Assembly (NCBI GenBank): GCA_013697725.1
Contig: JACCWI010000040.1
Coordinates: 124,001 to 188,000, forward strand
DNA from: Tatlockia sp.
GTDB taxonomy: Bacteria > Pseudomonadota > Gammaproteobacteria > Legionellales > Legionellaceae
Reading direction: 5' to 3'
Length of the DNA: 64,000 bases
Shown here: positions 21,237-52,447 of the stretch, in pieces
How positions within the stretch are numbered: the stretch's first letter is position 1
How the letters are laid out: the number at the start of each line of letters is the position of its first letter
Notes under the pieces: generated by a model
The model's database searches: none
Told to the model about the DNA's origin: nothing
What the model saw: only the letters and a program-made list of their open reading frames with translations
Program-made: the position numbers and the translations under genes

Positions 21237-22334
21237 ATGAGATTCCTTAACAAGCTTTTAAGTTTTTTATTTATAAACTCAAAGATAAATTCTTTGCTAG
21301 AGCATCATGAACTTTATATGATTGCTGAATCAAAAACTGCTAAAATCATCTATAAAAAACTGATTCGCCAATATCTTGGTTTAGGGTTTCCTCTTTCGTT
21401 TCTACCCGGGACTGAGGCTTATGCAGCACGAATAAATTTGTTATCCGTTATAGCCCGGTTAGAAGAGTACCGGCAAAATTCAACGCTTGATAATATTTAT
21501 ATCCATCTTTTTAAACGCACCCTTGCATCGATAAAATATAGTTTGGATAGAGAACGTTTTCAGGGGGATAAGGTATGGGGGGCAAATCGTTTAAATCCTT
21601 TCTTTTACCTCACGCAAATGGGAGTAATTTTTGTTGGTTTGTTAGCTCGAATAAATTTTAAGCTTCCTCCTCAGTTAGAGTTTCTAGGAGATTATATTGT
21701 TTTACTGGATCACCTTTTAATCCCCCTTTATATAATTACTTTTGTTATGCTAGTACTGGTAATGTGTGTTCATTTCACTCTATATTTTGCCACAGAAATT
21801 CTATTGAACAGTTTAAACAGTTTAATTATGGAACCTTTTATTTTTGCCTATGAAGTGCTAAAGCAGTTTTTCGAAAAGGAACAATTCACCCAAATTCCCA
21901 GTATTGAATACTCTGAGCTAGACCCTCTTAGAAAAACTATAGACATGAATGGTGAAGTTATTGAAACGGATAAACAAGCTAGATTAGAAATTCCAAAATG
22001 TTATCCCACAACTGAAAAGACTTTGATTGAAGGCTCAAAAGAATTAATTAACTCCTTTAAATTTCACCAAAATACTTTATTTTTTAAAGCTTATAAAAAC
22101 ACCGGTTTTTTTCAGCAAGATAAGGAAATCATTCAAGACAGCCATGCCCAATTAAAAGCGATGCAAGCTTTTTATTGGTTTGCTCTGCAGTTATTCCCAA
22201 TAGAGCTTAGCGAAATTATCTTTGACTGTTGTGTAAAAACACCGACTTTAGGGTTATTAAGCCCTAGACTTAGAAATTTAACCCATAAAACAGCTGAAGA
22301 GGAATTAAATTATTCGAATTATGCAATTATTTGA
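21237..22334 (+). CDS. Membrane protein of unknown family, first of a tandem pair
   Basis: A 365-residue protein not recognised from any family. Two adjacent membrane spans are predicted around residues 128-148 and 158-185. A long soluble tail follows, ending in Pro-Arg-Leu-Arg-Asn-Leu-Thr-His-Lys. The next gene is a paralogue: both begin with Phe-Leu-Asn-x-Leu-Leu-Ser-Phe-Leu-Phe-Ile-Asn-Ser-Lys and share Leu-Ser-Phe-x-Pro-Gly-Thr-Glu-x-Tyr, Glu-Pro-Phe-Ile-Phe-Ala-Tyr-Glu-Val, Leu-Ile-Glu-Gly-Ser-Lys and the C-terminal block. Near the end, Phe-Pro-Ile-Glu-Leu-Ser-Glu-Ile-Ile looks like the start of an F-box-type helix, but this is weak. Probably Legionella-specific; a secreted effector that inserts into host membranes is one possibility. 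Confidence 0.7.
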   Translation: MRFLNKLLSFLFINSKINSLLEHHELYMIAESKTAKIIYKKLIRQYLGLGFPLSFLPGTEAYAARINLLSVIARLEEYRQNSTLDNIYIHLFKRTLASIKYSLDRERFQGDKVWGANRLNPFFYLTQMGVIFVGLLARINFKLPPQLEFLGDYIVLLDHLLIPLYIITFVMLVLVMCVHFTLYFATEILLNSLNSLIMEPFIFAYEVLKQFFEKEQFTQIPSIEYSELDPLRKTIDMNGEVIETDKQARLEIPKCYPTTEKTLIEGSKELINSFKFHQNTLFFKAYKNTGFFQQDKEIIQDSHAQLKAMQAFYWFALQLFPIELSEIIFDCCVKTPTLGLLSPRLRNLTHKTAEEELNYSNYAII

Positions 22335-22486
22335 ATTCGCAGAGTATCTTTATTCGTCGGCTTACTATTGTGTCATTAAGACGATTCTTTCTAATAATTG
22401 GAATTAGATCAAAGAATTTTAATGGCCTAAATCTTTACAGATTGATTTAAATATAATAAAATATGGTTTTTCATGGGTAAAGTTCT

Positions 22487-23728
22487 ATGGAATTTCTGAA
22501 TGAATTATTAAGTTTTTTATTTATAAACTCAAAGGCAAATTCTTTAATTAAAGGTAAAAATAAAAAGTTTGAATTAATTGCCGCTCAAGACATTTATACA
22601 AGAGAGATTAGAAGCCTGTTAGGGTTTGGATTTGTCCTATCTTTTATACCCGGTACTGAACCTTATTCAGCACGAATGAACTTGTTATCTCATATTATAC
22701 GTTTTGAATCTAATCATACAGCTATACATAATATCTTAAATTATTTATTTTTAAGCCAGGTTAAATCTATTTATAAAAGTTTATTTGAAACTGATAACCT
22801 CTTTAAATTAATACGAAAAAATAAAAAATGGAACCGTGTAAATCCTTTTTTATACCTTACCAAGCTATTTATATATTTTATTTTTATAATTATAGGCTTA
22901 GTTATTGGTCTAGCTAGTTTTGTATCGGTGCTATTGGAACTTCATAACAATAAGAAACTCGACCTTTTTTTAATGATTATATTTTTACCGATTTTCTATA
23001 TTTTTATGTTTGCATTGAGTTGGCCAGTATTAGCTTATATGGTGTTATATTATATTACAGAACTAAGCTTAAACTTCTTATATACCTTATTAGTTGAACC
23101 TTTCATTTTTGCTTACGAAGTAATAAAACAGCTTTATGATAATTGGTCAACACAATCCTTATTAATTCCAACTGAGGATTTTTTAAAATTAACTGATCTT
23201 AGTGTGGCAGTTGAACTGCAAACTATTGAGGCCAATGCAAAATATTTAGAAGTCGAAATTGACAATTTGCAAGAGCAAATTTCTAGTCTAAAAGAGATTT
23301 TACCTACATCAGAACTGACTTTGATTGAAGGTTCGAAAGATTTAATTACAAATTATAAGAAATATCAAAATTCCGTTTTTTTTAAGGTGGATAAGAAGTC
23401 CTTACCACAGAAAAGCATGGGTACAATTGCAAGATTTGTCAACCCGAAAACCAGGTCGGGCCAACTTGCTTTATCCCAGCGACGGCCGAAAAAGGAAAGG
23501 GATTCTATTGTTGATCACCATAATCAAGTCGAAAATATGCATGCTTTTCACTTATATGCTCGTTATGTTTTTCCAGCAGAATTAAATGAAATTATTTACA
23601 GTTTCTGTTTGAAATCGCCTACCTTAGGATTTTTAATTCCTCGTCTCAGAAACTTAACGCATAAAGCGATAAATGAAGAGGTTGCTCAGGACGATAGCTT
23701 GATTGCAAGCAACCAAGCTACTCTCTAG
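22487..23728 (+). CDS. Membrane protein of unknown family, second of a tandem pair
   Basis: A 413-residue paralogue of the preceding gene, with near-identical DNA over the first dozen codons (21256-21281 against 22506-22531). Two strong hydrophobic spans lie around residues 124-146 and 160-190. It differs by an inserted predicted coiled coil at about residues 244-272 (Leu-Gln-Thr-Ile-Glu-Ala-Asn and then Leu-Gln-Glu-Gln-Ile-Ser-Ser-Leu) and by a basic loop near residue 320. The conserved tail Phe-Pro-Ala-Glu-Leu-Asn-Glu-Ile-Ile and Pro-Arg-Leu-Arg-Asn-Leu-Thr-His-Lys matches its partner. The 152-base gap between the two holds nothing recognised. Function is unknown. Confidence 0.7.
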   Translation: MEFLNELLSFLFINSKANSLIKGKNKKFELIAAQDIYTREIRSLLGFGFVLSFIPGTEPYSARMNLLSHIIRFESNHTAIHNILNYLFLSQVKSIYKSLFETDNLFKLIRKNKKWNRVNPFLYLTKLFIYFIFIIIGLVIGLASFVSVLLELHNNKKLDLFLMIIFLPIFYIFMFALSWPVLAYMVLYYITELSLNFLYTLLVEPFIFAYEVIKQLYDNWSTQSLLIPTEDFLKLTDLSVAVELQTIEANAKYLEVEIDNLQEQISSLKEILPTSELTLIEGSKDLITNYKKYQNSVFFKVDKKSLPQKSMGTIARFVNPKTRSGQLALSQRRPKKERDSIVDHHNQVENMHAFHLYARYVFPAELNEIIYSFCLKSPTLGFLIPRLRNLTHKAINEEVAQDDSLIASNQATL

Positions 23729-36961: not shown

Positions 36962-38230
36962 TTAAATTTCATAATTATACCCATATTCGCTTTCATCCCC
37001 AAGTAACTGAGCTTCTTCCTCTTCAGATGAAAAGGATACAATACATCGTTCATCAGTCAGTTCCTCACTCACAGCTGACATGTAATATTCCTCATCACTA
37101 CTTTCAGCCTTAAAAAAGCCAAAAAGCTGGCGGGCAGCATTGCGAGCTGTATGATGACTGTTTTCAACATACTTGTTACGTAACAGAAGTATAATAAGAA
37201 GAGATATTAATCCTGAAAGCATAGTAACCCCGATGTAAAAACTATCCCCAGCGTAGGACAAAAGATTTTGTTCCTGTTTAGTAAAATTATGGGTGCTATT
37301 GATATACTTTAAGGTTTTTCCTTCTACAATTATTACGGGTGTCATAAAAGCAATTGAAAAAAGGAACCACAAAATGGTCATACCTACTGGCTCTCTTATC
37401 ACCCAAGGGAGTTTTGCTCTTGTACTTTCTTGAACCTGATTTGCAAAAGAAAGTGCTAAGTTATTTTCTGCATTTAAAAAACTCTTTAAAATATCAAGCT
37501 TTCTTAATTCTTTATAAGTCCAGGAAGATTTTGTTTTCTTTTGGGTGTGATTATTCTCGGCAGTGATAGTTAAAATCTTTTCTTTTAAAGTCTGTAGTGA
37601 TTCTGATGAAAAAATTTCCGGTACATTCAAAAATGTGGGTATGTTTTGCACTAATTTCGATTTGTTAAAAGGGATAACGCTGTATTCAAGTTTCCCCTGG
37701 TTCTCATTTAAGTAAATTGTTCTTGGCTTGAGGCTATCCAATCCCTCATGCAGGATTGCTAAATCATAGTCCTGATTTAACTGATCAATAGAAATTATAA
37801 AAATGTTTTTAATAAAAACATACCTGTCATAAATGGGCATTTCGTTGATAATTTTATAGACCCGTTTTGAAATTGGCATTAGACCAAGTCGTTCGTTAAA
37901 AATAAATTCCTCTATAATTTTGTAAATTAATTCTGTAGGTAGCTCATCAAAAAAATTAACGATGCGATCCTCTTTCGATTTAATTGCTTGCTCACTGGAT
38001 ACAGAATTTATTTGAGTTTTTTTATTCCATACAGATAAAATTTTAGCTAGATAGTTATTAACTATGGTTAGATTTTCTTTATAATTTTCATCATTATCCT
38101 CTATGGAGTTCATAAGTACCTTGAACCGATCCTGGATAGGTATAAGATCTGCGGTATAAAGAATTGGTTGTAAAAAATAATCTTGCAATTGTTGACTGCT
38201 CGCATTTTGAATTTCTTGATGGCTGTACAT
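36962..38230 (-). CDS. Putative F-box-like effector with two membrane spans
   Basis: A 422-residue protein of unknown family (numbering from the ATG at 38230; an upstream TTG at 38284 is less likely). Residues about 92-130 resemble an F-box: Phe-Asp-Glu-Leu-Pro-Thr-Glu-Leu-Ile-Tyr-Lys-Ile-Ile and then Pro-Ile-Ser-Lys-Arg-Val. In eukaryotes and in Legionella effectors such as AnkB and LegU1 this binds Skp1 of the host ubiquitin ligase. Two membrane spans lie at about 283-302 and 330-350. The C-terminal tail is strongly acidic (runs of Glu and Ser), as in E-block translocation signals. The 175-base gap to the EEP-like gene holds AT-rich DNA only. Host targeting is inference. Confidence 0.6.
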   Translation of the reverse strand: MYSHQEIQNASSQQLQDYFLQPILYTADLIPIQDRFKVLMNSIEDNDENYKENLTIVNNYLAKILSVWNKKTQINSVSSEQAIKSKEDRIVNFFDELPTELIYKIIEEFIFNERLGLMPISKRVYKIINEMPIYDRYVFIKNIFIISIDQLNQDYDLAILHEGLDSLKPRTIYLNENQGKLEYSVIPFNKSKLVQNIPTFLNVPEIFSSESLQTLKEKILTITAENNHTQKKTKSSWTYKELRKLDILKSFLNAENNLALSFANQVQESTRAKLPWVIREPVGMTILWFLFSIAFMTPVIIVEGKTLKYINSTHNFTKQEQNLLSYAGDSFYIGVTMLSGLISLLIILLLRNKYVENSHHTARNAARQLFGFFKAESSDEEYYMSAVSEELTDERCIVSFSSEEEEAQLLGDESEYGYNYEI

Positions 38231-38581
38231 AAAATTTTCTCTAGTTAATGCCGCGAATGTTATATTATTGGCCAACTGTAGCAAAGTATTTACAGCTTAT
38301 AAAGCGATTATTCATATTTTTAATTTTTCCTCTGGCCTGGTTGCTTGCAATTAGTAGAGGAGTTTTAAGTTCCTGAGTACTTAAAACAAAATTTTGTAAA
38401 TTTACATGTTGATGTCTAATGGTTACTTCTCTGAGTATAAAATTCATGCTCAATAGTTAAAATGAAGTCACAACAACAAATGGACCCAAACTATTGGAAA
38501 TTATGGGAATGAAAGACCACAAAAATAGCTGTACTCTTATCTAGGTTGGATGAATGAAAATACAACGGAACACGAGGATTC

Positions 38582-47142: not shown

Positions 47143-47619
47143 ATGCATAAACATCCAATGACAGTGAAAGGTGCTGAAGCGCTTAAAAACGAATTGCATC
47201 GTTTAAAAACAATTGAACGTCCTAAAATTGTAGAAGCAGTCGCTACAGCAAGAGCTCACGGTGATTTAAAAGAAAACGCAGAATATCATGCAGCTCGTGA
47301 ACAACATGGTTTTAATGAGGGTCGAATAATCGAGTTGGAATCAAAACTTTCTCATTGCCAAATCGTTGATATCACCAAGCTTCCTAATAACGGAAAAGTT
47401 GTTTTTGGTGCTAGAGTTGATTTGTGTCATCTCCAAACCGCTACCGAAATTAGCTATCAAATTGTCGGTGAAGATGAGGCAAATATCAAAGCCAACAAAA
47501 TATCTTACAGCTCACCTATTGGCCGAGCTTTAATTGGTAAAATGGTTGATGACACAGTCTCTGTTCAAACACCAGGTGGAATCGTCGAGTATGAAATTAT
47601 TGAAGTTCATTATAATTAA
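47143..47619 (+). CDS. greA: Transcription elongation factor GreA
   Basis: GreA rescues backtracked RNA polymerase by stimulating transcript cleavage. The coiled-coil N-terminal domain has the acidic tip region [10 protein letters not shown]. The C-terminal FKBP-like domain ends with Gly-Gly-Ile-Val-Glu-Tyr-Glu-Ile. 158 residues, normal. Directly after carB, as in many gammaproteobacteria. A weak hairpin follows at 47624-47647. Confidence 0.96.
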
Positions 47620-47623
47620 TGGT

Positions 47624-47647
47624 CTGGAATTCCTCTGACAATTCCGG
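47624..47647 (+). terminator. Weak hairpin after greA
   Basis: 47624-47631 pairs with 47640-47647 (8 bp including a G-T pair, 8-base loop). No T-run follows, so termination here is uncertain. Confidence 0.35.
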
Positions 47648-47722
47648 AAAATAGGTAGGTTTAAGTTGCTTGTTATTACAGGACTGGGGCAAATGCGAAC
47701 TGGAAACGTGATTTTTGTTTAA

Positions 47723-47875
47723 TTTAGTACTAATTTGTTTGAAGTTATTACGTTAGCTAATAAATATCCAGAGTTATCGTTACATAAATTCGGCGAACCT
47801 GAACACTCATTTCGATTATTTTCACATGCGAAGGGGATAGGGTATACAGAGTTAAATGAATATGTCACTGGATGA
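47723..47875 (+). pseudogene. Possible gene remnant between greA and the lipoxygenase-like gene
   Basis: A 50-codon open frame without a start codon, bounded by stops at 47720-47722 and 47873-47875. Its translation looks protein-like (Ile-Thr-Leu-Ala-Asn-Lys-Tyr-Pro-Glu-Leu-Ser, then Phe-Gly-Glu-Pro-Glu-His-Ser-Phe-Arg, then Gly-Ile-Gly-Tyr-Thr-Glu-Leu-Asn). No family was identified. It is AT-rich like the host DNA, so it may be what is left of a native gene disrupted by the insertion next to it. The rest of the 569-base gap 47620-48188 shows nothing recognisable. Confidence 0.35.
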
Positions 47876-48188
47876 TGAATGCTACCTATTTCGAAATCTC
47901 TGATGACTTTGAGCATCGTACAGCTTGACCTTATTAAAGGCTCTTAAAGTTCTACCGGTGGAGGTGTACGAAAGTACCTTTGATTTGTTGATAATCCTTG
48001 AAAATGAACTCGATGTAAAGGCAATGGAACGAAGCCTTACCTAACCCTCGAAAGTTTTTCCTTTGGTTGCTTTCCCATTCGCATGCTGATAAAAGAGGCG
48101 CTCCGCCGGCAGTTTTCTGGCATTGGCCCTAGTAACAGGGTTTTTTCGACTAAACGTTAATGATCTTAAATGGTAGGTAGGCAGAATA

Positions 48189-51100
48189 ATGAAAGGATTT
48201 TTTTTAAGGAGTGCGTCCTCCTCTGCAGCTGGTCTCTATGGTGAGACCCCCTATTCTCGTTTAGATCTGTTGATCGATCATCGCTCTCCAGCTCCTCCCT
48301 CCTCGTTTCGTGACAAGGTGCAGAAACGATTGCTCCTTGCCTTGGCTGGCATGATCGGCCTCTTCCTGCTCTTCACGACTGTGGTCCCATTGTTCGTGTC
48401 GATGCTTCTTCTGAATCTCCTCGTGGGAGTGTTGCTGTATCGTTGGCAGCCTTCGATTCTCGGCTCCATGTTTTCCCGCATCCACTGGACTCCCCAAGAC
48501 ACGGCTGGTGTCGCCAACGATTTCAGACGCTTTGTTGGCGAGCGGAACACTCTCCATTATGTCCCAGTGATTGCCTATGCAAAGATTGAGCTGAATGCGG
48601 ACCTGCCAGAGGAACTGACGCGGAACTGGTTGCAGCCGGGTGCGACCTATGAAGCTTACTACTCCATTGCTCACGCGGCGGACGCGACGGATGGGAAAGG
48701 GATCAAAGCAACCGTGCCACTCCTCCTGTTAAAATTTCAATACCGTGATCCAAATACGGGGAAGATCAGCGAAGTCACACAGACAGGAGGCTATCCTGTG
48801 CACCGCTTCTTCTCCTCGCCTCGGACCATTTGGTACGGGAATACACTGCGCAGCGGACCGTGGTATCGCAAGCTCGGAGTGCTGATGTCTCCCAGCTTCT
48901 GGTTGCACACGATTCCACAAGTGATTGAGCTGAAGAATCGCGGTAATTTTCGCCAGGGCAAATTCAGTGTGGAATCGCTGCCTTGGAGCACCTTGCTCTG
49001 GTATGCGTGGGGGGAAGAAGAGTCCTGTCGATTCACCTGGGTGCCCCAACATCCAACTGCTCGTACTCCGGCGGACATGAAAGACAAGGGGTACGAAACT
49101 CGACTGGCTCAGGATGCACTGCCGATCATTTATGACCTCTGCATACAGAAGAAGAAGCGAGAAGCGAACGATCGGGACGCATGGCACATCGTGGACGAGC
49201 GCCTGTGTCCCTTACAAAAGATCGGTACGATGACACTACCCAAACAGGATCTCACACGCCCCGTCTTGCAGACCATCCATCGCAAGGCTCGCATCAACAT
49301 TGCGGATAATCCGGCTGATATGCAAGTGCTCGGCCCACATGTGGCTCGGATCCATCTGTACGATGTCATGCAAGCCATACGTCAGAGGGAGCCCTACCTG
49401 TCGACTGCAGAACTGGTCCAGGCAGTCGCGGGCAATCTGGCGCGACAAGCACACATGAGGGGGATTCTAGCCGATCGTTTCTGTACCGTCGAGAAAATCA
49501 AACAGATGCTTCAACAATATTTCGACGAGAACAAAGAGGCGGAGGATCGAGACCACTTGGATCTCAAAGAGAGAGAGCAGATTCTGAACGATGCATATAC
49601 TACGGTGGAAGCGGAGATGATGAACGCGCATCCTAGTGATGTCCCTCGCGATCATCGGGCGGACACTCTCGCGGTCTGGCATCTTTGTCTCGATCCTCAT
49701 CACACAGGCCAGACCTTCCTCGCCCAACTGATCGGTTTGATTCGTTCGATTCAACACATGGAGATCTGGAGGAAAGACATGGCATTGAATCATTTCGGTC
49801 CGATGGAAGCGCCCTCATGGATGTTGGATCGGTTTGGCAGAACGGTGCTCAGAGCGGCGCTGAAGCGAAATGCGGTTCCAATCACTGCTGCCCGGGCTGG
49901 GCCTCCCGCCGCCCAACGCACATTGCAGATGAACAGTTTGTTTGGCATCCACTTTCCCCGGCATGATCCCAATGTTGCTTGTTTCAGCTCACTCGAACAA
50001 GTTGGCATCTTCCTCGCCTCCTCTATCTTACCTCATCCCACCGATGGCGCGTGGGCGAGTCGTCGCCAAGCGGTGGGAATGATCCAACAATATTTCGGCA
50101 GAGTGTTATCGCCCGATCTCACGCCATGGAACTTGGATCAGACAAGCGACGAGGCAACCGCCAGATTTGCGTTCCTGGGTACAGGTTCACCGCTGATCAA
50201 ACCGACGGACGGGAAGGATCAACAACGACTGACCGGACTCGGGCTGGCCAGTGCAATGGCTTGTCGAATCAGGTGGAAGATCCAACTGGATTATTTCACC
50301 AAGTATCCGATGCATCCTGGAGTGGAACCGATGGGAGCGGATGCGTTCTTTGCACCGGGCGAAGACTATCCTCGACTGGTTGCGATCATTCGATGTGGCA
50401 AATTGTTTCTGCCACCCATGGTGGATGATCCTGATAGTTCACCACTGAAGGATCCCGAGTGGGAATGGGCCAAGTTCGCCTTTCGTTCCACCGTGTTCAC
50501 CATGGTCACTGTGGTTCATCACTTCCTGTACCAGCATGCCATCAGCTCGAACATCCTCAATATTGCTGCACACGAACAACTGCCTGCGACTCATCCTCTG
50601 CGATCGCTGCTGGAGCCCTTCATCTTCGGGTCGACCACAGTGAATCAGAATGCGCTCATGCTCTTATTCTCGAAGAATGGTACGATCCATCGGCGCTGCT
50701 GGACCTACGAGGGAATCAAACAGATTGCGGCGGAGCACTACGAACGATTCAGTAATTTCTATTGCACATTCGAGGAGTCGATCCGCGCCAACGGGGTCGA
50801 GGAATTGAAACTGCCCTATGAAACAGATGGCACACTCGTGTGGAATTGTATCCGTGTGTTTGTGCGTGAGTTCTTGACATGCCTCTATGATCTTGATCAA
50901 CCCATCGTGGATGAACATGTGATTCGTTTCTACCAAGCCGCTCGTCAGTTGATGCCGAGTTCGGTCCGCTCCTCTCCTCGCATGCCCGAACAAGTCGATT
51001 GGAAGGCCCTTGAGTTTTACCTCGTCCACTCTCTGTTTGAGGTGACTGCGGGTCACACTCATCTCGGTCAGATGGTTGAGTACTGTCGTGATCCTTACAT

Positions 51101-51392
51101 GTTCTCTTGGCGCTTGCTGGCTGGTGTGCCCTACGCCTCTCCTCAAATAGCCACTCAATTCATCGTCGGAGTGATCGGGACAGGTTTACCCATGCCCATG
51201 CTTCTAGACCCCGACTGGCCCAATCACTTCCCAGGAGACACAAAGCAACAGAAACAGGCCAGACGAGTCTTTGTCACATTTCAGCAGCGGATGGAGGACA
51301 TTGCACACACGATAGAGACAGCCAACAAGACGCGCAGATGGCCGTTCGCAAATTTCTCGCCAAAGAATATGCAGATCAGTGCCTCCATCTAA
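48189..51392 (+). CDS. Lipoxygenase-like protein, membrane-anchored, horizontally acquired
   Basis: A 1067-residue protein. The C-terminal half carries lipoxygenase hallmarks: His778-x4-His783 (Phe-Leu-Tyr-Gln between them), then Glu-Gln-Leu-Pro-Ala-Thr-His802-Pro-Leu-Arg-Ser-Leu-Leu-Glu-Pro. Next come Asp-Gly-Thr-Leu-Val-Trp-Asn and His956 in Thr-Ala-Gly-His-Thr-His-Leu-Gly. A C-terminal isoleucine ends Ile-Ser-Ala-Ser-Ile, the carboxylate that binds iron in lipoxygenases. The usual asparagine four residues after the third histidine is a glycine. Lipoxygenases add oxygen to polyunsaturated fatty acids. Residues 48-84 form a hydrophobic hairpin, an unusual membrane anchor, and no PLAT domain was seen. 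Two hand-counted 60-base lines inside are 52% and 60% GC, against 37% in greA. Native-like AT-rich codons cover only the first nine. Activity is untested. Confidence 0.82.
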   Translation: MKGFFLRSASSSAAGLYGETPYSRLDLLIDHRSPAPPSSFRDKVQKRLLLALAGMIGLFLLFTTVVPLFVSMLLLNLLVGVLLYRWQPSILGSMFSRIHWTPQDTAGVANDFRRFVGERNTLHYVPVIAYAKIELNADLPEELTRNWLQPGATYEAYYSIAHAADATDGKGIKATVPLLLLKFQYRDPNTGKISEVTQTGGYPVHRFFSSPRTIWYGNTLRSGPWYRKLGVLMSPSFWLHTIPQVIELKNRGNFRQGKFSVESLPWSTLLWYAWGEEESCRFTWVPQHPTARTPADMKDKGYETRLAQDALPIIYDLCIQKKKREANDRDAWHIVDERLCPLQKIGTMTLPKQDLTRPVLQTIHRKARINIADNPADMQVLGPHVARIHLYDVMQAIRQREPYLSTAELVQAVAGNLARQAHMRGILADRFCTVEKIKQMLQQYFDENKEAEDRDHLDLKEREQILNDAYTTVEAEMMNAHPSDVPRDHRADTLAVWHLCLDPHHTGQTFLAQLIGLIRSIQHMEIWRKDMALNHFGPMEAPSWMLDRFGRTVLRAALKRNAVPITAARAGPPAAQRTLQMNSLFGIHFPRHDPNVACFSSLEQVGIFLASSILPHPTDGAWASRRQAVGMIQQYFGRVLSPDLTPWNLDQTSDEATARFAFLGTGSPLIKPTDGKDQQRLTGLGLASAMACRIRWKIQLDYFTKYPMHPGVEPMGADAFFAPGEDYPRLVAIIRCGKLFLPPMVDDPDSSPLKDPEWEWAKFAFRSTVFTMVTVVHHFLYQHAISSNILNIAAHEQLPATHPLRSLLEPFIFGSTTVNQNALMLLFSKNGTIHRRCWTYEGIKQIAAEHYERFSNFYCTFEESIRANGVEELKLPYETDGTLVWNCIRVFVREFLTCLYDLDQPIVDEHVIRFYQAARQLMPSSVRSSPRMPEQVDWKALEFYLVHSLFEVTAGHTHLGQMVEYCRDPYMFSWRLLAGVPYASPQIATQFIVGVIGTGLPMPMLLDPDWPNHFPGDTKQQKQARRVFVTFQQRMEDIAHTIETANKTRRWPFANFSPKNMQISASI

Positions 51393-51575
51393 GCAAGGAT
51401 GGCACGCAGAGGCCATGGTGCACTCGCTGAGCGCTCCGACCGCGCGCAGCAAGATTCCTCGGCTCGATGAAAAGAACGGAGCAGCAGGAACGGCTGCTTG
51501 AGCAGGGGTCGGCGGATTCTAAATGGCCTGGACCACTCGTCGACCACGACGCGTTCTCATTTGCCCCATTCCTGT
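48212..51575. other. GC-rich foreign island
   Basis: Base composition jumps to GC-rich near codon 9 of the lipoxygenase-like gene. It falls back to AT-rich about 180 bases after its stop, near 51575. Many long antisense frames inside are a by-product of this composition. The tail 51393-51575 holds no gene and may be donor flank. No terminal repeats, integrase or transposase were seen. Confidence 0.7.
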
Positions 51576-51790
51576 AATAACTACCTAAGTGCATTATCTC
51601 TCTTATCTCAGGTCTACATCTCCTTACCTCAATTTGTTCGAGGTATCTAGCTGAGCTATATTTTAAGCTTAAAATTGCATTCAAATATCTATGAAAATTT
51701 TTTTTGTTATAAATGTGTAAAATATTTTCAGAGATAATTATTAATAGACATCTTGTGTTACCTTGAATGAAAATATTTTGAGAGATACTT

Positions 51791-52447
51791 ATGTCAGATT
51801 CACCGGAACAAACTAAGAAAAAGATAGAACAAGAAAAGCGCAACTTAGCTCTAGCCCAAGCTAATCAGGATGAGCAATTGAAAAAAACGATTAGCGCTAA
51901 CCCAATCATTAAACCCGTATTAGAGGAAAACGATGCTAAAATCGAAGTTCAAGATGCCTGTCATTTCAAAATAAAATCATCCGATAAAGACAAAACTGAT
52001 ATCGAAAAAATTATTGAAGACTATAAAAAAGAAAACTATGCTCAATTTTATAAAGAAGACATTTTAGCATTTCCTAGTCAAGAAGAGGCTCTAAATTTTT
52101 TCACCAAGCAAGCAACAGCTGAGCCAGCCAGAAAATTTTTGTTTTCACAAGTCGATCTGGATCTTAAACTTACTGGCTTTAATTTATATTCCTGTGGCAC
52201 CAAAAAACTTTATCAAGGTACTTATCCGGCGATTAAAAGCGAAATAGCAGCTGATTTAAAATTAAATCCTGATAATCAAAATTTGATAGAAGGTTTGAAG
52301 GAAATTTCTGCTTTGGCAAATCCTACTGCAGGATTTCGAACTAGCATGAAAGAAGTAAAAGAGAGAACAAAATCTGAGGAACAAGCAGGTGATGAGATTG
52401 AGTTGGGTAGTATAAATCCTTTCAGTACAAAACCTAAGCCCTATTGA
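51791..52447 (+). CDS. Unknown charged protein, effector candidate
   Basis: A 218-residue soluble protein, rich in lysine and glutamate, with no recognised family. The N-terminal 45 residues are predicted to be helical (Lys-Lys-Lys-Ile-Glu-Gln-Glu-Lys-Arg-Asn-Leu-Ala). The C-terminal tail is glutamate-rich (Lys-Glu-Arg-Thr-Lys-Ser-Glu-Glu-Gln, Asp-Glu-Ile-Glu-Leu). It ends in small polar residues and prolines, compatible with a Dot/Icm signal. AT-rich, so native to this genome rather than part of the adjacent GC-rich island. The 215 bases before it, from the island edge, are AT-rich and may hold its promoter. Confidence 0.6.
   Translation: MSDSPEQTKKKIEQEKRNLALAQANQDEQLKKTISANPIIKPVLEENDAKIEVQDACHFKIKSSDKDKTDIEKIIEDYKKENYAQFYKEDILAFPSQEEALNFFTKQATAEPARKFLFSQVDLDLKLTGFNLYSCGTKKLYQGTYPAIKSEIAADLKLNPDNQNLIEGLKEISALANPTAGFRTSMKEVKERTKSEEQAGDEIELGSINPFSTKPKPY

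What the first reader, a model, noticed from the sequence alone, without database searches (positions are those of the whole stretch)
48189..51392. Lipoxygenase-like gene in a Legionella-like genome
Seen: metal-type His778-x4-His783, the Leu-Pro-x-x-His-Pro block at His802, a third histidine at 956, and isoleucine as the last residue, all in lipoxygenase order. Known: lipoxygenases are rare in bacteria, and P. aeruginosa LoxA acts on host-type polyunsaturated fatty acids. Inference: the bacterium could oxidise amoebal or macrophage lipids to make signalling oxylipins or alter host membranes.
Basis: partly seen in the sequence, partly recalled or inferred. Interest (0 to 1): 0.9.

Follow-up and report, generated by a model that had tools for sequence, protein, structure and literature searches.

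The report
Coral-style catalase–lipoxygenase fusion in bacterium
A likely Legionella-related bacterium carries one gene that fuses a catalase-family domain to a lipoxygenase domain, in the same order as a known coral enzyme, and the protein is predicted to oxidise unsaturated fatty acids and then reshape the product, perhaps into signalling lipids.

The parts
48189..51392 (+). whole gene: catalase-family/lipoxygenase fusion, 1067 aa (P0001)
48318..48446 (+). residues 44-86: hydrophobic stretch, likely membrane anchor (one long helix in the model; a hairpin is not excluded)
   Evidence: Kyte-Doolittle 19-residue windows, maximum 2.62; P0002 has the same at 61-100; helix 38-84, pLDDT 65-74 in the blocks 41-70
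48477..49478 (+). residues 97-430: catalase-family (predicted haem) domain
49347..49382 (+). R387-x3-Y391-x6-R398: predicted proximal haem Tyr ligand and two Arg
   Evidence: R387 and R398 invariant in 13 of 13 rows of A6 and in its reduced version A8, 11 of 11; Y391 in the Tyr column in 3 of 3 alignment modes, Tyr in 17 of 19 family members; matched to Y353 and R360 of the coral enzyme by spacing (residues from PMC5617202)
49488..49754 (+). residues 434-522: EF-hand-pair-like linker; the first loop has a 4-residue insertion here, canonical in P0002
   Evidence: no match over a cut-off
49842..51389 (+). residues 552-1067: lipoxygenase domain
50520..50537 (+). His778 and His783, predicted iron ligands
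   Evidence: invariant in 24 of 24 rows
50592..50594 (+). His802 of the Leu-Pro-x-x-His-Pro block
   Evidence: invariant in 24 of 24 rows
51054..51056 (+). His956, predicted iron ligand
   Evidence: invariant in 24 of 24 rows
51387..51389 (+). Ile1067, C-terminal carboxylate predicted iron ligand
   Evidence: sequence; end of the alignment with solved lipoxygenases in 49 of 50 rows
51393..51590 (.). GC-rich stretch downstream of the stop, apparently the rest of the imported segment
   Evidence: 100-base GC 0.64 and 0.52, then 0.31
47143..47619 (+). greA, conserved left flank of the insertion
51791..52447 (+). 218-aa ORF of a family widespread in the bacterial family, right flank; next to greA in the near relative G002

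Best explanation
The gene encodes a fusion of a catalase-family domain and a lipoxygenase domain joined by an EF-hand-like linker, likely held at a membrane by a hydrophobic N-terminal stretch, and it would likely work in two steps: the lipoxygenase domain would add oxygen to a polyunsaturated fatty acid and the haem domain would rearrange the resulting hydroperoxide. Shown here: the open frame, the two domain assignments, their order, the kept iron-site histidines, the kept proximal Tyr/Arg set, the foreign base composition and the insertion into a conserved gene block. Inferred: that iron and haem are bound, that the hydroperoxide passes between the sites as in coral allene oxide synthase-lipoxygenase, which product forms (allene oxide, aldehyde or epoxide), and that the hydrophobic stretch is an anchor. 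The EF-hand-like linker sits where the coral protein has its calcium-activated PLAT (C2-like) domain, so calcium control is plausible for the family, but the loop is broken by an insertion in this copy. The substrate would likely come from the eukaryotic host or prey, since bacteria of this kind are not known to make such fatty acids (recalled, not tested).
Against: The distal haem side is not recognisable: the family His, seen in 17 of 19 members, falls on V116, L122 and V116 in three alignment modes (His123 is next to L122 and aligns only by hand), and the Arg, Lys and Asn of that side are not clearly kept. P0001 itself has no Pfam Catalase match. The lipoxygenase lacks the usual Asn/His/Ser at the fourth ligand place; of 79 columns in residues 552-1067 that are conserved in at least 85% of 22 other lipoxygenases, 41 are kept and 38 are changed or gapped (my count without 6 columns in or before the linker). 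Both models are weak (mean pLDDT 55.5 and 47.7), the blocks around Y391 have pLDDT 50-59, and the alignments given to the predictor held members of the families then matched. Allene oxide synthase and catalases tie within 1 Z. No EF-hand hit passes its cut-off. No activity was measured.
Confidence: 0.6

Rival explanations
1. A one-step lipoxygenase: the catalase-family domain has lost its chemistry and is only structural or membrane-facing, so the product is the plain fatty-acid hydroperoxide.
For: Distal haem residues cannot be placed, while the lipoxygenase metal ligands are invariant.
Against: The proximal Tyr and both Arg are kept in this protein and in its relative P0002, and the N-terminal part is the better conserved one (70% identity for residues 100-437, against 61% for residues 550-1067), which would be odd for an inert part.
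Confidence: 0.22
2. A decaying import without function in this genome.
For: Found in 1 of 143 genomes; unadapted base composition; first EF-hand loop disrupted; foreign GC-rich DNA remains after the stop.
Against: The frame is open over 1067 codons, the three His ligands and the C-terminal Ile are kept, and the match to P0002 runs the full length.
Confidence: 0.13
3. A secreted effector: the protein is moved into the host cell and acts on host lipids there.
For: The genome has Dot/Icm-type genes; the gene looks foreign.
Against: No secretion signal was tested; the C terminus, where such signals usually lie (recalled), is the predicted buried metal ligand, and the hydrophobic N-terminus fits a membrane protein.
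Confidence: 0.12
4. An assembly error that placed a eukaryotic gene in a bacterial contig.
For: Coral-like architecture and a GC above that of all 51 other ORFs kept for the comparison.
Against: It lies inside a 191,750-base contig between conserved bacterial genes in one open frame; assembly completeness 100, contamination 1.13; the protein database counts the protein on 2 contigs.
Confidence: 0.04

Closest known systems
Coral allene oxide synthase-8R-lipoxygenase (Plexaura homomalla, PDB 3dy5; its first domain 1u5u)
   Same: Catalase-fold domain first, lipoxygenase domain last, similar length; P0001 97-405 aligns to chain 35-367 and 552-1067 to 553-1066; proximal Tyr and following Arg matched by spacing.
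   Different: No PLAT domain detected, an EF-hand-like linker instead; hydrophobic N-terminus; distal haem residues not recognisable; 14-16% identity in the structural alignments. That the coral PLAT lies between the halves is recalled; its calcium role is in the title of 2fnq.
Cyanobacterial catalase-lipoxygenase fusions (Acaryochloris marina, Anabaena; passages of PMC11719350)
   Same: Same pairing of domains in a bacterium.
   Different: No such fusion turned up in the loci fetched here, so it was not compared residue by residue; the cyanobacterial lipoxygenases sampled are far from this one.
Pseudomonas aeruginosa lipoxygenase LoxA (PDB 4g32, 5ir5)
   Different: A P. aeruginosa lipoxygenase of 685 aa shows PF00305 only; LoxA is described as periplasmic (passage of PMC11011848) or secreted (abstract start of PMC6702342).
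Bacterial catalase-family domain fused to an animal-type haem peroxidase (Rhizobium jaguaris L013, L099, L148; cyanobacterial catalase-haem dioxygenase in PMC11719350)
   Same: Catalase-family domain N-terminal to a candidate fatty-acid dioxygenase.
   Different: The partner is PF03098 An_peroxidase, not a lipoxygenase.

Membership tests
Lipoxygenase (PF00305) | Profile match over the curated cut-off | tested here: met
   45.1 bits against 23.6; P0002 45.6
Lipoxygenase (PF00305) | Three iron-binding histidines | tested here: met
   H778, H783, H956 invariant in 24 of 24 rows
Lipoxygenase (PF00305) | C-terminal Ile (or Val) carboxylate as ligand | tested here: met
   Ile1067, Val in P0002; end of the structural alignment in 49 of 50 rows; distance to metal not measured. 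Some lipoxygenases in the set end in Gly, Thr or Asn
Lipoxygenase (PF00305) | Asn/His/Ser at the fourth ligand place | tested here: inconclusive
   HTHLGQ here, HNQVGQ in P0002; gapped against HxAVN of most others; L002 and L006 lack it too
Lipoxygenase (PF00305) | Oxygenation of polyunsaturated fatty acids | not testable with these tools
   no assay
Catalase-related haem domain (allene oxide synthase type) | Catalase fold | tested here: met
Catalase-related haem domain (allene oxide synthase type) | Proximal Tyr with RxxxY and following Arg | tested here: met
   R387, Y391, R398
Catalase-related haem domain (allene oxide synthase type) | Distal His, Thr, Asn and two further haem Arg (H67, T66, N137, R64, R102 of the coral enzyme) | tested here: inconclusive
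   three alignment modes disagree on the His; none keeps the whole set
Coral allene oxide synthase-lipoxygenase | Domain order catalase-like, then lipoxygenase, colinear | tested here: met
Coral allene oxide synthase-lipoxygenase | PLAT domain between the two | tested here: not met
   No PF01477 match with E up to 1 in P0001 or up to 10 in P0002; absence at profile level only. So it works like this family but is not filed in it
EF-hand protein | Two EF-hand loops over a curated cut-off | tested here: inconclusive
   P0002 linker 17.9 bits against 25.4; 15 of 16 PDB rows with E up to 10 are proteins I recall as EF-hand proteins, the best at E 0.35; P0001 first loop disrupted

The most novel reading that the evidence does not exclude
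A Legionella-related intracellular bacterium captured, most likely from a protist, a complete membrane-tethered two-step oxylipin synthase of a lineage not described before, whose calcium-sensing PLAT domain is replaced by an EF-hand pair, and uses it to turn host polyunsaturated fatty acids into signalling oxylipins inside its host.
Probability: 0.14. Interest if true: 0.87.

Novelty: new variant of a known kind. Interest (0 to 1): 0.6.

Why it matters
Fused enzymes that make and then rearrange fatty-acid hydroperoxides are known from corals and a few cyanobacteria. Finding one in a genome with Dot/Icm-type genes, on a lipoxygenase branch far from the 26 others sampled and with a different module between the halves, would add a further architecture and raises the testable question whether an intracellular bacterium makes host-type lipid signals. 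It also shows that a catalase-family gene beside a lipoxygenase gene recurs in bacteria (Lentzea, a Myxococcales MAG), which gives other systems in which to test the two-step idea.

Tried and rejected
Searches that led nowhere: viral contigs with P0001 and with A1: no relative; genome contigs with A1: 265 pattern matches, no relative; phages by DNA: no match; PADLOC on P0001 and the 218-aa ORF: none; NCBIfam: no family over its cut-off for the lipoxygenases or the catalase-family protein. Two of three protein searches returned only P0001 and P0002, scoring about 8000 candidates each, the capped set that shares most words; the third added a Mytilus 'allene oxide synthase-lipoxygenase protein-like' at E 1.3, not significant. 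Relatives that share few exact words would be missed.

Considered and dropped: (a) closeness to animal lipoxygenases because human 15-LOX-2 tops the PDB list (54 bits): a cyanobacterial and a Pseudomonas protein score about as high with the domain alone (56.4 and 53.7 bits), so this says nothing of origin. (b) The 218-aa ORF as part of the import: it has matches in 41 of 140 genomes and lies beside greA in G002. (c) Lentzea as a true fusion (my first reading): searches show two adjacent genes; the longer frame overlaps the lipoxygenase gene in another frame. (d) A fusion in 25 genomes behind my lipoxygenase loci: 20 of 25 have catalase-family matches; in the 25 loci returned, the only lipoxygenase frame is the Lentzea neighbour gene. 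(e) Exact insertion borders: the greA-ORF intergenic DNA of G002 does not align. (f) The mixed alignment A5 put the two families on top of each other and was not used for claims except the last residues of the lipoxygenases. (g) EF-hand and PLAT: absence of hits is at profile level only.

Weak points: the tree warns of long branches, so only 'outside the other 26 rows' is used. Both structure models have low mean confidence.

Full report
Observation. The ORF at 48189-51392 (+) codes for 1067 aa. PF00305 matches residues 752-917 at 45.1 bits, over its cut-off of 23.6, and is the only such match reported in the genome, with 0 of 14 control genomes ringing. Of 48 PDB sequences with E up to 1, the best are human ALOX15B and ALOX5 at 52-54 bits, and all 48 are named as lipoxygenases or the allene oxide synthase-lipoxygenase protein. 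His778, His783, His802 and His956 are invariant in 24 of 24 rows of A9.

The half before the lipoxygenase domain gave no Pfam hit. A tblastn search of plasmid records (9 records matched) returned, besides lipoxygenases, four 'catalase family protein' genes of Paracoccus yeei matching residues 261 to 358 or 368 and a Rhizobium jaguaris frame matching 94-423, all at weak E-values from 0.03 to 0.2. Direct comparisons strengthened this: Paracoccus E 3e-9 for a single comparison chosen after the search, and P0001 against the Rhizobium protein over about 330 residues E 3e-6 in a small set. The Rhizobium protein passes Pfam's Catalase cut-off (28.1 against 25 bits), the Paracoccus one does not (17.3). 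Profile against profile, the N-terminal parts of P0001 and P0002 match 19 catalase-family proteins with 96.7% probability over 259 columns, against 0.1% for a lipoxygenase alignment as control. Conversely, the Paracoccus protein, searched in 229 genomes, hits 9, and in the window's own genome it hits this gene alone.

Active sites. In the coral enzyme the haem residues are R64, R102, R360, distal H67, T66, N137 and proximal Y353 (passages of PMC5617202). R387 and R398 here are invariant in 13 of 13 rows and in 11 of 11 rows of the reduced set, and Y391 stands in the Tyr column in three of three alignment modes; Y391 and R398 have the 7-residue spacing of Y353 and R360. The distal side could not be aligned reliably: the His column falls on V116, L122 and V116; by hand, without gaps, His123, which P0002 shares, lines up with the Rhizobium His. 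In the lipoxygenase, 79 columns within residues 552-1067 are conserved in at least 85% of 22 other lipoxygenases; 41 are kept and 38 are not (its totals of 42 and 43 include 6 columns in or before the linker, which I left out).

Linker and N-terminus. Residues 434-522 form two helix-loop-helix units in the models, the second at low confidence. P0002 has a canonical EF-hand loop at 453; 15 of 16 PDB sequences matched by its linker with E up to 10 are proteins I recall as EF-hand proteins (calcium-dependent kinases, mitochondrial calcium uptake protein 1, calbindin, Cdc31), the best at E 0.35; Pfam EF-hand models score below their cut-offs. In P0001 the first loop carries a 4-residue insertion, so calcium binding is doubtful here. 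Residues 44-86, and 61-100 in P0002, are strongly hydrophobic. Whether this is one helix or a hairpin, and on which side the enzyme lies, is not known.

Origin. GC is 0.534 and third-position GC 0.602, against a mean of 0.323 (sd 0.042, maximum 0.427) for 51 other ORFs; of the 60 ORFs, I dropped 8 that overlap larger ones. P0001 has a match in 1 of 143 genomes of its family; the order search also covered 143 genomes with the same result. In 14 of 14 greA-to-sufB stretches fetched from relatives, greA, the acid phosphatase gene, the regulator gene and sufB are in place and no piece of the lipoxygenase is found at E 1e-3. Seven of the 21 relatives in the genus were not fetched this way: in six greA and sufB lie on different contigs or over 30 kb apart, and G015 (1.6 kb apart) was left out by oversight; all 21 are without a match. 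In G002 the 218-aa ORF follows greA after 277 bases, so the insertion lies between greA and that ORF. GC-rich DNA continues about 200 bases past the stop. The donor is unknown: P0001 and P0002 form a pair on a branch of 4.56 changes per site outside 25 bacterial lipoxygenases and one from Mytilus (which warns of long branches).

Context in other bacteria. PF00305 has a match over the cut-off in 6 of 369 genomes drawn from the class, this genome included. In 2 of the 80 lipoxygenase loci kept (of 118 found; flanks of at most 4 kb) a catalase-family gene lies next to the lipoxygenase gene: Lentzea aerocolonigenes L095 and a Myxococcales MAG L074. In Rhizobium jaguaris L013, L099 and L148 the domain is fused to an animal-type haem peroxidase (PF03098), in Paracoccus L014 it is beside one, and in L104 it is fused to a lysine-oxidase-type part. 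PMC11719350 (passages only) describes the lipoxygenase domain of an Acaryochloris catalase-lipoxygenase fusion, an Anabaena fusion that converts 9R-hydroperoxide to an allylic epoxide, and a cyanobacterial catalase-haem dioxygenase fusion.

Literature. Three searches that combined Legionella with lipoxygenase found nothing on topic: 0 papers, 0, and 8 seen as a listing with abstract starts, none opened. A search for lipoxygenase with EF-hand, catalase, fusion and allene oxide found 0. The library holds open-licence papers only.

Mechanism. The most economical reading is a two-step oxylipin enzyme, as for the coral and Anabaena fusions. Which product forms cannot be told, since in corals substitutions near the haem shift a lyase towards allene oxide synthase (title and passages of PMC5617202). 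That host lipids are the substrate and that products act on the host are inferences from the Dot/Icm-type genes, not results.

Noticed in passing
L095 3644-6357 (Lentzea aerocolonigenes); L074 3950-6864 (Myxococcales MAG): A lipoxygenase gene directly followed by a catalase-family gene: candidate unfused two-step pairs in bacteria.
   Followed up: partly
   Followed up: no
L015, L070, L074: Lipoxygenases whose last residue is Gly, Gly and Thr rather than Ile.
   Followed up: no
L157 1400-1676 (genome G002, greA-ORF intergenic): By eye, a long inverted repeat fills much of the 277-base intergenic stretch at the site where the window carries the fusion gene.
   Followed up: no
window 21237-23728 and 36962-38284: Three ORFs (365, 413, 440 aa) in AT-rich stretches without a Pfam match at E 0.001.
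   Followed up: no
window 51791-52447: 218-aa protein family with matches in 41 of 140 family genomes, function unknown.
   Followed up: partly
window 47620-48188: Stretch left of the gene with, by eye, what looks like the tail end of a broken reading frame.
   Followed up: no
   Followed up: partly
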